Translations under genes and position numbers: made by a program | Part shown: positions 37,595-54,350 of the stretch, one piece after another | Layout: every line of letters starts with the position of its first letter | How positions within the stretch are numbered: the first letter of the stretch is position 1 | Assembly: GCF_000419685.1 (NCBI RefSeq) | Contig: NZ_ATTM01000004.1 | Coordinates: 124,001-188,000 of the forward strand | Direction: 5' to 3' | Source of the DNA: Flavobacterium antarcticum DSM 19726 | GTDB taxonomy: Bacteria > Bacteroidota > Bacteroidia > Flavobacteriales > Flavobacteriaceae | DNA length: 64,000 nt | The notes under the pieces: generated by a model | What the model saw: only the letters and a program-made list of their open reading frames with translations | Told to the model about the DNA's origin: nothing | Databases searched by the model: none

Positions 37595-37664
37595 AATTAT
37601 GAGTTATGAGTTATGAGTTATGAAATACGATTTATGATTTATGAATTACGGTTTATGATTTATG
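37595..37664. repeat. Ten tandem heptads (aatTATG type)
   Basis: Ten consecutive 7-bp units of pattern (A/G)(A/T/G)TTATG, with a few ACG variants, make 70 bp directly upstream of the YqiA-like gene. Decayed heptads of the same type reappear at 37743-37777, and four clean units are at 54195-54222. Confidence 0.7.
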
Positions 37665-37678
37665 ATTGATACTAAGGA

Positions 37679-43250: not shown

Positions 43251-43763
43251 ATGATTGAATCTCATTTTAGAGCTGCAGCACAAAAATACGAGGGATCGTA
43301 TAACGTCAGTCACTTCAATGTTGCAGGAAATCGAGGAAGCATAAATCCCATAAGTATCTATACATTTTCAACAACCTACAAAGGCATTTTAATCAATATA
43401 AAATATGAAATGGGAAATCATAATTTAGCAGAAGTAGTATTTGAAATACAAAATCCGACTTTAAACGTTGATTTCAAAATAAAAACACGCGATAACTTCA
43501 GCAGGTTATTTTCTTCAAAAAAAAATCCGTGGAAAGTAACTTCAAAAAAAAATGTGTTTACAAACAAAATAGAAGAAGCGCTTCGAACCAGCGGCTTAAC
43601 AAAAATGGCCGATGAAACTACTTTTGAACCCACTATAACTGGCCAAACTAATGATCAAATGTATCTGTTCAGCACAACATTTTATTTAGGTTTCGAAAAT
43701 AAGGAGCACTCTTTAGATGCAATCATTCACTTTCATCAGAAGGTGATTGATATTATCCTCTAA
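43251..43763 (+). CDS. Hypothetical protein, 170 residues
   Basis: I do not recognise this protein. It has no signal peptide or transmembrane helix. It is predicted to be alpha/beta with alternating hydrophobic strands (ILINIKYEMG, AEVVFEIQNP, YLFSTTFYLGF) and a basic loop. It follows the phosphatase-like gene on the same strand at a distance of 87 bp. The downstream repeat array is not part of it. Confidence 0.5.
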   Translation: MIESHFRAAAQKYEGSYNVSHFNVAGNRGSINPISIYTFSTTYKGILINIKYEMGNHNLAEVVFEIQNPTLNVDFKIKTRDNFSRLFSSKKNPWKVTSKKNVFTNKIEEALRTSGLTKMADETTFEPTITGQTNDQMYLFSTTFYLGFENKEHSLDAIIHFHQKVIDIIL

Positions 43764-43799: not shown

Positions 43800-43850
43800 A
43801 CTCTATATGAAACTTGCGTTTAAATTACTCAAATTCACTACATATAGAGT
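43800..43850. repeat. Perfect inverted repeat left of the tandem array
   Basis: ACTCTATATG (43800-43809) and CATATAGAGT (43841-43850) are exact reverse complements separated by 31 bp. It lies 55 bp before the tandem array. Confidence 0.65.
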
Positions 43851-43904: not shown

Positions 43905-44171
43905 AGAAACCTCCTGTACTGATTTAGAAACCCAGCCTACTTGGTTAGAAAACTGCCGTACTGACTTAGAAACCTAGCGTACTTGGTTAGAAAACTGCCG
44001 TACTGACTTAGAAACCTAGCGTACTTGATTAGAAAACTCCCATACTGACTTAGAAACCCAGCGTACTTGGTTAGAAAACTCCCGTACTGACTTAGAAACC
44101 CAGCGTACTTGGTTAGAAAACTCCCATACTGACTTAGAAACCCAGCGTACTTGGTTAGAAAACTCCCGTAC
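43905..44171. repeat. 21-bp tandem repeat array (12 full units plus a partial)
   Basis: Twelve consecutive units of exactly 21 bp, starting at 43905, 43926 and so on to 44136, and a partial unit at 44157-44171. Two unit types alternate (AGAAAACTCCCGTACTGACTT-like and AGAAACCCAGCGTACTTGGTT-like), so the higher-order period is 42 bp. GTAC recurs once per unit in most units. The array is non-coding on the evidence available. Confidence 0.9.
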
Positions 44172-44191: not shown

Positions 44192-44232
44192 GCAAATCGG
44201 TAATCAGTATCCTACAAATCACAACGATTTGC
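44192..44232. repeat. Perfect inverted repeat right of the tandem array
   Basis: GCAAATCG (44192-44199) and CGATTTGC (44225-44232) are exact reverse complements separated by 25 bp. It lies 20 bp after the array. The whole 43764-44353 gap holds the array, the two hairpins and nothing else that I can support. Confidence 0.6.
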
Positions 44233-44323: not shown

Positions 44324-44331
44324 TAAATTTG
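44324..44331 (+). promoter_or_regulatory. -7 element of the MtfA-like gene
   Basis: TAAATTTG matches TAnnTTTG and lies 22 bp before the ATG at 44354. No clear TTG is seen upstream. Confidence 0.4.
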
Positions 44332-44353: not shown

Positions 44354-45241
44354 ATGTACCTTATCCTTATTTTCATCATCGTTCTTGCCATCGGGCTGTT
44401 CAGCTACAATTGGAAACTTAAAAAGAAAAAGACATGGGTGAAACCAAAAGTGAATTTTCCGGCCAAATGGCGTACGATCTTACACCAAGAAATTCCTTTT
44501 TACCGCGCTTTATCAACTTCTGAAAAAGAAAAGTTCGAGTTTAAAATTCAAGAATTCCTATTAAACTGTACCATTATTGGCGTTGGTACTGAAATCACCA
44601 TTGTTGACAAAATCCTAGTGGCAACCAGTGCCGTCATTCCCATCTTCGGATTTGAAGACTGGCAATACGTCAACTTGAAGGAGGTTTTAATTTACCCCGG
44701 TATTTTCAACACAGAATTTGAAACAGAAGGCCCTAATCGGAATGTTTTAGGAATGGTGGGAACCGGATACATGGACGGCAAAATGATTTTATCGCAAGAA
44801 GCTTTGGCACACGGATTTGACAATACTTCTGATAAAAAAAACACCGCAATACACGAATTTGCTCACTTAATTGACAAACGAGACGGTGTGATTGATGGCA
44901 TTCCTACTTCATTATTACACGAAAAACACTTACTTCCCTGGATTAATTACATGGATAAAAAGTTGGACGAAGTATTTGAAGGCGATTCAGACATCAATCC
45001 CTACGGCGGAACAAACAGAGCTGAGTTTTTCTCCGTAACGAGCGAATATTTCTTTGAACGCCCAAAATTATTAAAGAAAAAACATCCCGAACTCTACCGC
45101 TTACTTGCTAAAATATACCAGCAAGATGTGTCCAAACGCGACCTGTCAATTGATGCCGAAGAGGTTTCTCGCAACACGCCTTGTCCCTGTGGAAGTGGTG
45201 AAAAATATAAAAATTGCTGCGGTAGTGTCACCGCTAATTAG
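44354..45241 (+). CDS. MtfA-like zinc metallopeptidase with SEC-C tail
   Basis: A 295-residue protein: N-terminal transmembrane helix (about 2-17), a peptidase domain with HEFAH (167-171) as zinc ligands and catalytic glutamate, a downstream glutamate in NRAEFFSVTSEYFFERP as likely third ligand, and a C-terminal SEC-C motif (PCPCGSGEKYKNCC, near 275-290). E. coli MtfA interacts with the Mlc repressor and has neither the helix nor the SEC-C tail. The tail probably binds zinc and may contact proteins or ribosomes. It may act at the membrane face. Confidence 0.85.
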   Translation: MYLILIFIIVLAIGLFSYNWKLKKKKTWVKPKVNFPAKWRTILHQEIPFYRALSTSEKEKFEFKIQEFLLNCTIIGVGTEITIVDKILVATSAVIPIFGFEDWQYVNLKEVLIYPGIFNTEFETEGPNRNVLGMVGTGYMDGKMILSQEALAHGFDNTSDKKNTAIHEFAHLIDKRDGVIDGIPTSLLHEKHLLPWINYMDKKLDEVFEGDSDINPYGGTNRAEFFSVTSEYFFERPKLLKKKHPELYRLLAKIYQQDVSKRDLSIDAEEVSRNTPCPCGSGEKYKNCCGSVTAN

Positions 45242-54190: not shown

Positions 54191-54194
54191 AGGG

Positions 54195-54222
54195 AATTAT
54201 GATTTATGAATTATGATTTATG
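54195..54222. repeat. Four tandem heptads (aattatg/atttatg)
   Basis: Four consecutive 7-bp units of the same type as those at 37595-37664. They abut the promoter of the DbpA-like gene. Confidence 0.65.
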
Positions 54223-54350
54223 AATTTAACACTCTTTAAATTACATAAAACCATTTACATTATTTTGTCATTCTGAATAAGCAAGAATCTCATCAAGTTT
54301 AGGAATTTATTAGAGTTTTCTCTTTCAACGGATGGTACGTTTATAAATTA

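What the first reader, a model, noticed from the sequence alone, without database searches (positions are those of the whole stretch)
43905..44171. Exact 21-bp tandem array of 12.7 units with alternating unit types
All full units are exactly 21 bp (two helical turns), with no indels, and two unit types alternate to give a 42-bp period. Most units carry a GTAC core. The regular phasing is like iterons, centromere-like sites or arrays for a DNA-bending protein. No rep or par gene is seen nearby, and no coding frame is convincing.
Basis: partly seen in the sequence, partly recalled or inferred. Interest (0 to 1): 0.75.

Follow-up and report, generated by a model that had tools for sequence, protein, structure and literature searches.

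The report
Noncoding 21-bp tandem repeat in Flavobacterium
A short stretch of DNA between two ordinary genes of a Flavobacterium is a 21-letter tandem repeat that grew by stepwise duplication; it belongs to a known but unexplained kind of bacterial repeat that keeps its unit length while its sequence varies from place to place.

Summary
Confirmed: window 43905-44171 holds 12 full 21-bp units plus 15 nt. Two unit types alternate (identity 0.66 at lag 21, 0.94 at lag 42), with an 84-bp step and the most diverged unit at the left end. It looks noncoding and occurs once in its genome. No match at E<=0.001 in 397 other Flavobacterium genomes. No Rep/Par-type family among 28 nearby proteins, no Rfam match, no significant dyad symmetry, no class-wide curvature. 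Iteron, centromere and bending readings are not supported.

It is not isolated. The genome has two more 21-bp arrays with different units, and other Flavobacterium species carry such arrays. This matches the constant-size, variable-sequence 20-21 nt noncoding repeats described in Bacillus and other bacteria (PMC8161180).

My reading: a satellite grown by duplication in 21, 42 and 84-bp steps, its unit length probably held at two helical turns because a protein reads it on one face. The history is well supported; the protein is inferred. A functionless minisatellite is a serious rival. New member of a known, unexplained kind.

The parts
43905..44171 (+). 21-bp tandem array, 12 full units plus 15 nt, two alternating unit types
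43905..43925 (+). leftmost, most diverged unit (probable old edge of the array)
   Evidence: 17-18 of 21 bases shared with the other units of its type, which share 19-21 among themselves
43947..44030 (+). two nearly identical 42-bp dimers (units 3-4 and 5-6, one difference)
   Evidence: unit list; identity matrix
44031..44171 (+). higher-order repeat: units 7-9 recur as units 11-13 at 84-bp spacing
   Evidence: identity matrix and lag-84 identity 0.93
43800..43850 (.). 10-bp perfect inverted repeat with 31-nt loop, left of the array; role unknown
44192..44232 (.). 8-bp perfect inverted repeat with 25-nt loop, right of the array; role unknown
43251..43763 (+). left neighbour, 170-aa protein without Pfam or NCBIfam match; relatives in 6 of 398 Flavobacterium genomes, own included
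44354..45241 (+). right neighbour, M90 (MtfA-type) metallopeptidase with C-terminal SEC-C motif
   Evidence: Peptidase_M90 6.5e-64, SEC-C 2.3e-8
44324..44331 (+). TAAATTTG, possible -7 element of the M90 gene (Bacteroidota consensus TANNTTTG recalled); 152 bp right of the array
   Evidence: read; consensus recalled, not tested

Best explanation
It is a noncoding chromosomal satellite of the kind that keeps a constant unit size of about two DNA turns while its sequence varies. What the sequence shows: nested repeats of 21, 42 and 84 bp with the most diverged unit at the left edge, best read as growth by tandem duplication; the length stayed exactly 21 bp while the two unit types diverged to 14 of 21 identical positions; the same genome has two further 21-bp arrays with different units. 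Inferred: the length is held because a DNA-binding protein contacts each unit on the same face of the helix through a short core (here perhaps CGTACT...TTAGAAA), while the rest of the unit is free to drift and is homogenised by duplication. The protein has not been identified. It could act as a nucleoid or local expression platform between the 170-aa gene and the M90 peptidase gene.
For: Array anatomy and nested steps. Two more arrays in the same genome: C1:283537-283790, alternating, 254 bp, and C9:37761-37976, 10.3 copies of TACTCATTTGTGTGTCTTCGC. In stretches taken by position from 13 Flavobacterium genomes (1.91 Mb; 37 arrays), 6 of the 9 arrays with unit 16-30 bp have 21 bp and none has 20 or 22. 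Identity is at least 0.10 higher at lag 42 than at lag 21 in 7 of 24 arrays compared. Units are related between separate arrays of one genome (G010, G116, G013, G248) and, more weakly, between species (G208-G248 z 11 and 7; own array with G146 z 7, G248 z 4.9, G392 z 4.8). In G013 most units of three arrays keep TACTACTTTA while the other half varies more. A constant 20-21 nt size with variable sequence is described as a wider bacterial class (PMC8161180).
Against: No protein was identified. The array is not conserved in position: F. tegetincola, whose M90 protein is 80% identical, has an antiporter gene there and no array. Units have no significant dyad symmetry and curvature is not a class property. 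The own array resembles only 3 of 23 other arrays beyond every permuted copy; two of these three were chosen by BLAST and one by a TAC pattern, and TAC selection inflates such scores. Own 1 and own 2 are not significantly alike (z 1.8). Five of the six sampled 21-bp arrays come from one genome, G010, part of whose stretches I chose knowing it to be rich in repeats; five of the six lie in an open frame of 89-184 codons, which a period divisible by three tends to keep open. After removing heptamer and coding-like hits by eye, 21 bp is only about twice as common as 22 bp in the pattern searches, so the constraint may be 'about two turns' rather than 21.
Confidence: 0.47

Rival explanations
1. Functionless minisatellite: slippage or unequal recombination duplicated a chance 21-bp repeat, then the diverged pair. 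The common 21-22 bp size reflects the duplication mechanism, not selection.
For: Nested 21/42/84 steps and a diverged edge unit are what unequal exchange gives. No match at E <= 0.001 in relatives and no array in the matching interval of F. tegetincola. Heptamer arrays are also common in the genus. No class-wide dyad or curvature signal. 22-bp arrays occur too.
Against: Arrays of different sequence in one genome and across the genus share a unit length of 21-22 bp, while a true 20-bp array appears in only 1 of 169 genomes by eye (4 of 169 have any match). Related units recur at separate loci of one genome. The two unit types here keep the same length at 67% identity.
Confidence: 0.41
2. The array acts as RNA: transcribed as a spacer or small RNA between the two co-directional genes.
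For: Both neighbours are on the same strand. Satellites of 52 nt are transcribed in Bacillus coagulans (PMC8625621, passages).
Against: No Rfam match. All 200 shuffles of the + strand and 191 of 200 of the - strand fold at least as well. Folding of 24 arrays against column-permuted copies shows no consistent sign (mean z -0.60 and -0.98; one outlier, G010c, z about -7). Array orientation relative to co-directional neighbours is mixed.
Confidence: 0.06
3. Iterons or a partition centromere captured from a plasmid or phage.
For: Same-face repeats of 20-22 bp are typical of such sites (recalled).
Against: No replication or partition family in 28 nearby proteins; no plasmid, phage or viral match; most of the 28 are ordinary chromosomal genes.
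Confidence: 0.03
4. A coding repeat of seven residues (reverse strand) in a decayed or unannotated protein.
For: 21 is a multiple of three; reverse frames read YGSFLTK-YAGFLSQ over most units.
Against: Stops inside the array in the left units, no family match above cut-off.
Confidence: 0.03

Closest known systems
Noncoding bacterial tandem repeats of constant 20-21 nt size and variable sequence (Subirana and Messeguer; PMC8161180; the 2020 J Bacteriol paper is not held, its content is recalled)
   Same: Noncoding; unit of 21 bp; several arrays of different sequence per genome; doubled (40-42 nt) periods; species-restricted; low positional conservation.
   Different: Flavobacterium and Bacteroidetes are not mentioned in PMC8161180. 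Here two unit types alternate strictly with an 84-bp step, and units resemble, weakly, those of some other species.
Heptamer arrays (TAACTGA arrays, PMC4679880; GGGNATC repeats, PMC4692102; abstracts and outlines seen)
   Same: Intergenic arrays of constant unit size; heptamer arrays occur in the same genus and genome; 21 = 3 x 7.
   Different: This array has no 7-bp substructure (lag-7 identity 0.13).
Plasmid iterons and ParR/TubR-type centromeres (recalled)
   Same: Direct repeats phased to the helix.
   Different: No replication or partition gene found nearby; chromosomal; no match in the plasmid collection.
Higher-order satellite arrays of eukaryotes (recalled)
   Same: Diverged monomers amplified together as a higher-order unit, with a degenerate edge.
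   Different: Bacterial, 267 bp only, single locus.

Membership tests
Constant-size 20-21 nt noncoding satellites | unit of 20-21 nt (20-23 nt across bacteria), at least 4 repeats | tested here: met
   21 bp, 12.7 units; definition from PMC8161180
Constant-size 20-21 nt noncoding satellites | not protein coding | tested here: met
   stops in every forward frame and in the left units of the open reverse frames; no family above cut-off; expression not tested
Constant-size 20-21 nt noncoding satellites | several arrays in one genome with the same length and different sequence | tested here: met
   three arrays in G000: window, C1:283537-283790, C9:37761-37976
Constant-size 20-21 nt noncoding satellites | related 40-41 nt (double) periods occur | tested here: met
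   42-bp period here and in own array 2; figure legend in PMC8161180
Constant-size 20-21 nt noncoding satellites | a short signal shared by the arrays of one species | tested here: inconclusive
   all three arrays have in-phase TAC, but TAC was taken from own 1 and own 2 was found by it, so only own 3 is independent; own 1 and own 2 are not significantly alike (z 1.8)
Constant-size 20-21 nt noncoding satellites | species-specific, poorly conserved in position | tested here: met
   no match at E<=0.001 in 397 other Flavobacterium genomes (at most two candidates scored per genome) or 59 relatives; no array in the F. tegetincola interval; strains of the species itself not available
Constant-size 20-21 nt noncoding satellites | transcribed (reported for the 52-nt class) | not testable with these tools
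   no RNA-seq available
Plasmid iterons | replication initiator gene adjacent | tested here: not met
   28 proteins between 31.9 and 60.8 kb scanned, none of this type, 4 of them without any match; some ORFs in the span were not scanned
Partition centromere (parC/parS/tubC) | par or tub operon adjacent | tested here: not met
   same 28 proteins
CRISPR array | identical repeats separated by unique spacers | tested here: not met
   units are contiguous without spacers
Heptamer satellite | 7-bp substructure | tested here: not met
   lag-7 identity 0.13 and lag-14 identity 0.15, below the chance level of 0.26

The most novel reading that the evidence does not exclude
Flavobacterium makes an unidentified protein that polymerises on, or bridges, DNA presenting a short core once every two helical turns. 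Because phase matters more than sequence, each species, and even each locus, can grow its own satellite that the protein uses as a chromosomal docking platform. The alternating unit types would then be two half-sites of one 42-bp binding register.
Probability: 0.25. Interest if true: 0.75.

Novelty: new member of a known kind. Interest (0 to 1): 0.42.

Why it matters
Bacterial noncoding satellites with a fixed unit length and free sequence have been described but not explained. Finding several 21-bp arrays of different sequence in one Flavobacterium genome, in a genus with tractable laboratory species (recalled), gives a place to test whether unit length is held by a phase-reading protein or by the duplication mechanism.

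Tried and rejected

Dyad symmetry of units as operator-like sites: 0 of 24 21-bp arrays significant (one consensus per array, so alternating types were mixed). Some 22-bp strings printed look palindromic by eye; I did not test them.

Intrinsic curvature: no class effect (wedge angles recalled). One array, G010c, is an outlier (z 6.5, and folding z about -7).

RNA structure: none found.

Heptamer origin of the 21-bp unit: lag-7 identity in the 24 arrays ranges 0.13-0.45, so a few others could be heptamer-derived but not this one.

A single-unit ancestor at the matching site of F. tegetincola: not significant; 1323 of 2000 shuffles and 1090 of 2000 real 133-bp stretches score as well.

Period preference by pattern counts: 21 bp 64 of 169 genomes (hand count of the rows for the handles; itself reports 99 of 299), 22 bp 23 of 169, 20 bp 4 of 169. 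Much of the 21-bp count is heptamers or coding heptads: of the 30 genomes with a locus (L210-L239), by eye and about 12 hold a 21/42-bp array, 11 a 7- or 14-bp array, and the rest are coding-like or unclear. Of the 23 genomes at 22 bp I judge 12 true 22-bp arrays, 9 of 11 bp and 2 chance; of the 4 at 20 bp, 1 true, 2 of 4 bp, 1 chance. TAC is not specially enriched at 21 bp: the reversed control has counts of the same order by eye. No 18- or 24-bp control could be run (budget).

Array orientation: of 11 arrays with both neighbours co-directional and a clear TAC strand, 7 same and 4 opposite; a twelfth, G010a, with a weak TAC strand, would be opposite. Not significant.

Selection of the 24 arrays: own 1 and own 2; 15 reached through the TAC pattern; 2 through BLAST similarity to own 1 (2 of the 19 non-own loci fetched); 5 from stretches taken by position. 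Left out before that count: arrays with another base unit (7, 8, 9, 14, 16, 22 bp and longer), short 21-bp stretches below the filter (for example L256, L133, L143, L149), the coding-like and unclear hits, and own array 3, found later. In one search, ORFs lying mostly inside an array were ignored by construction.

Genomes sampled were not drawn blindly: single-contig genomes were preferred, and the second set of G010 stretches was taken after one search had shown G010 to be rich in repeats.

Literature: searches found no paper for the combined terms used (21-bp repeat with Bacteroidetes or Flavobacterium; satellite terms). The 2020 J Bacteriol catalogue, which may list such arrays, is not held, so I do not claim that they are unreported.

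Full report
OBSERVATION. Tandem Repeats Finder reports 43905-44171 with periods 21 (12.7 copies) and 42 (6.4 copies, 93% matches, 0% indels). Split by hand it is 12 units of 21 bp and a 15-nt partial unit, strictly alternating between AGAAAACTCCCGTACTGACTT-like and AGAAACCCAGCGTACTTGGTT-like units. Identity is 0.66 at lag 21, 0.94 at lag 42 and 0.93 at lag 84, and about 0.3 at lags 20 and 22. The two consensuses agree at 14 of 21 positions (P 1.1e-4 per register; the other 20 registers give 0-9).

HISTORY. Units 3-4 and 5-6 are dimers with one difference, and units 7-9 recur as units 11-13 at 84-bp spacing. Unit 1 is the most diverged member of its type. This is the signature expected of duplication in steps of one, two and four units with an old left edge. 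It needs no function.

PLACE. The window lies in a 3.08-Mb draft genome (C4:124001-188000). The genus is Flavobacterium: G268, listed as same genus, matches the F. tegetincola record L003 in contig length and locus. The array sits in a 590-bp gap between a 170-aa orphan (relatives in 6 of 398 genomes, own included) and an M90 metallopeptidase with a SEC-C motif. Of 28 proteins scanned between 31.9 and 60.8 kb none is a replication or partition protein; 4 have no Pfam match, and some ORFs of the span were not scanned. Searches of plasmids, phages and viral contigs gave nothing, nor did Rfam. The array occurs once in its genome. F. tegetincola (L190) is collinear up to 41.7 kb and again at the M90 gene; the interval between holds an antiporter-like gene and no array.

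RELATIVES OF THE ARRAY. No other genome reaches E <= 0.001: 59 others (36 of the genus) and 397 others of the genus, where at most two candidates per genome were scored and the best other match has E 0.0013. Among the weak hits, 2 of the 19 non-own loci fetched were themselves long 21-bp arrays between genes with alternating or partly alternating units (L130, L137). A pattern search for TAC every 21 bp, five times, matched 99 of 299 genomes. It also found a second own array (C1:283537-283790, units TACTTTATTAATAACTAGAAC and TACCAATCAATAAACGTGAAC). A CAT pattern found a third (C9:37761-37976, TACTCATTTGTGTGTCTTCGC, 10.3 copies). The reversed control has counts of the same order, so 21-bp periodicity, not TAC, is what recurs.

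HOW COMMON. In stretches taken by position from 13 Flavobacterium genomes (1.91 Mb), 37 arrays passed one filter: 9 have units of 16-30 bp, 6 of these are 21 bp, none is 20 or 22 bp. Five of the six are in one genome (G010), part of which was sampled after it had looked repeat-rich, and five of the six lie in an open frame of 89-184 codons. The own-genome sample (400 kb) had none. In 788 kb from other bacteria one 21-bp array (3.1 copies) was found among 8. The TAC pattern at other spacings matched 23 of 169 genomes at 22 bp and 4 of 169 at 20 bp, against 64 of the same 169 at 21 bp (hand count). The 21-bp figure is inflated by heptamers and coding heptads (about 12 of 30 inspected genomes hold a true 21/42-bp array); corrected by eye it is roughly twice the number of true 22-bp arrays (12 genomes).

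CLASS PROPERTIES. I compared 24 21-bp arrays. The neighbour call, which ignores ORFs lying mostly inside an array, puts them between genes, although 3 overlap a small predicted ORF of 79-156 aa. Seven of 24 have identity at least 0.10 higher at lag 42 than at lag 21. Related units recur within genomes (G010, G116, G013, G248) and between some species (G208-G248, z 11 and 7; others). The window array exceeds every permuted copy with 3 of 23 others: G146 (z 7) and G392 (z 4.8), both chosen by BLAST, and G248 (z 4.9), chosen by the TAC pattern. The test used 40 permutations for each of 276 pairs, and arrays chosen by TAC share TAC by selection, so these z values are upper limits. In G013 most units keep TACTACTTTA while the rest varies more. 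No array has significant dyad symmetry. Curvature averages z 0.55 and RNA folding z -0.60 and -0.98, with one outlier, G010c.

WHAT IT IS. These features match the noncoding tandem repeats of constant 20-21 nt size and variable sequence described by Subirana and Messeguer in Bacillus and reported by them for other bacterial groups. They also note related 40-41 nt repeats and short species-specific signals, and low conservation among strains for the 52-nt class; they propose a polymerising DNA-binding protein or RNA transcripts (PMC8161180: results part 1, discussion, tables and passages read; PMC8625621: passages; PMC6749651: abstract and passages; PMC4692102 and PMC4679880: abstracts and outlines). 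Flavobacterium is not mentioned in PMC8161180. The 2020 J Bacteriol catalogue is not held.

HOW IT WORKS. Growth by nested duplication is the direct reading of the sequence. That the length is held at two turns for a protein that reads one face of the helix is inferred, from the shared length of different arrays and the recurring units. The best rival is a functionless minisatellite whose size reflects the duplication mechanism. I put the functional reading a little ahead, at 0.47 against 0.41, and regard the two as separable by the phase-change pull-down and by strain comparison.

Noticed in passing
window 37597-37667: Short array of 7-bp units (TTATGAT) with a 21-bp higher period, 10 copies of 7, between genes; resembles the heptamer arrays common in the genus.
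   Followed up: partly
window 54194-54226: 14-bp direct repeat (2.4 copies), again a multiple of seven.
   Followed up: no
G014:C1, G002:C57, G134:C1, G119:C20, G116:C39 and G030:C2 (strings printed): 22-bp arrays in other Flavobacterium whose units look palindromic by eye, e.g. TTACCGCGGTAA or ACCAATACTATTGGT plus spacer, unlike the 21-bp arrays; not tested.
   Followed up: no
G063, G071, G023, G163, G112, G186, G156, G161: Degenerate 11-bp arrays (TACTTCATCCA, TACTTCTAGCA, TACACTCGGCA) with similar units in several species.
   Followed up: no
L240, L259 and G010:C1:855314, 1190049, 2183824, 2244798: One genome (G010) carries a dispersed family of 20-21 bp arrays, units like TACGAGTATCGTGAAATGCA, at five or more loci.
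   Followed up: partly
L260 9415-9510: A pair of inverted GCGAGCGTCCCGCTCGTG / ACGAGCTTGACGCTCGCACGAG elements lies about 30 bp left of the second own array.
   Followed up: no
L313 15023-15617; L246 5487-5947: Tandem copies (106 bp x 4.7; 91 bp x 5.1) whose units look like tRNA genes by eye.
   Followed up: no
L186 19480-19958 (G000:C5): Three 160-bp tandem copies in the own genome, not covered by an open frame, followed by short C/T-rich repeats.
   Followed up: no
L195 3529-5956 (F. tegetincola, G268:C11): Long arrays of 46-bp repeats with higher-order periods of 194-331 bp.
   Followed up: no
37 arrays: 20 of the 37 tandem arrays in the Flavobacterium stretches have a base period that is a multiple of seven (12 of 15 in G010, 8 of 16 in eight other genomes, 0 of 6 in the remaining four).
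   Followed up: partly
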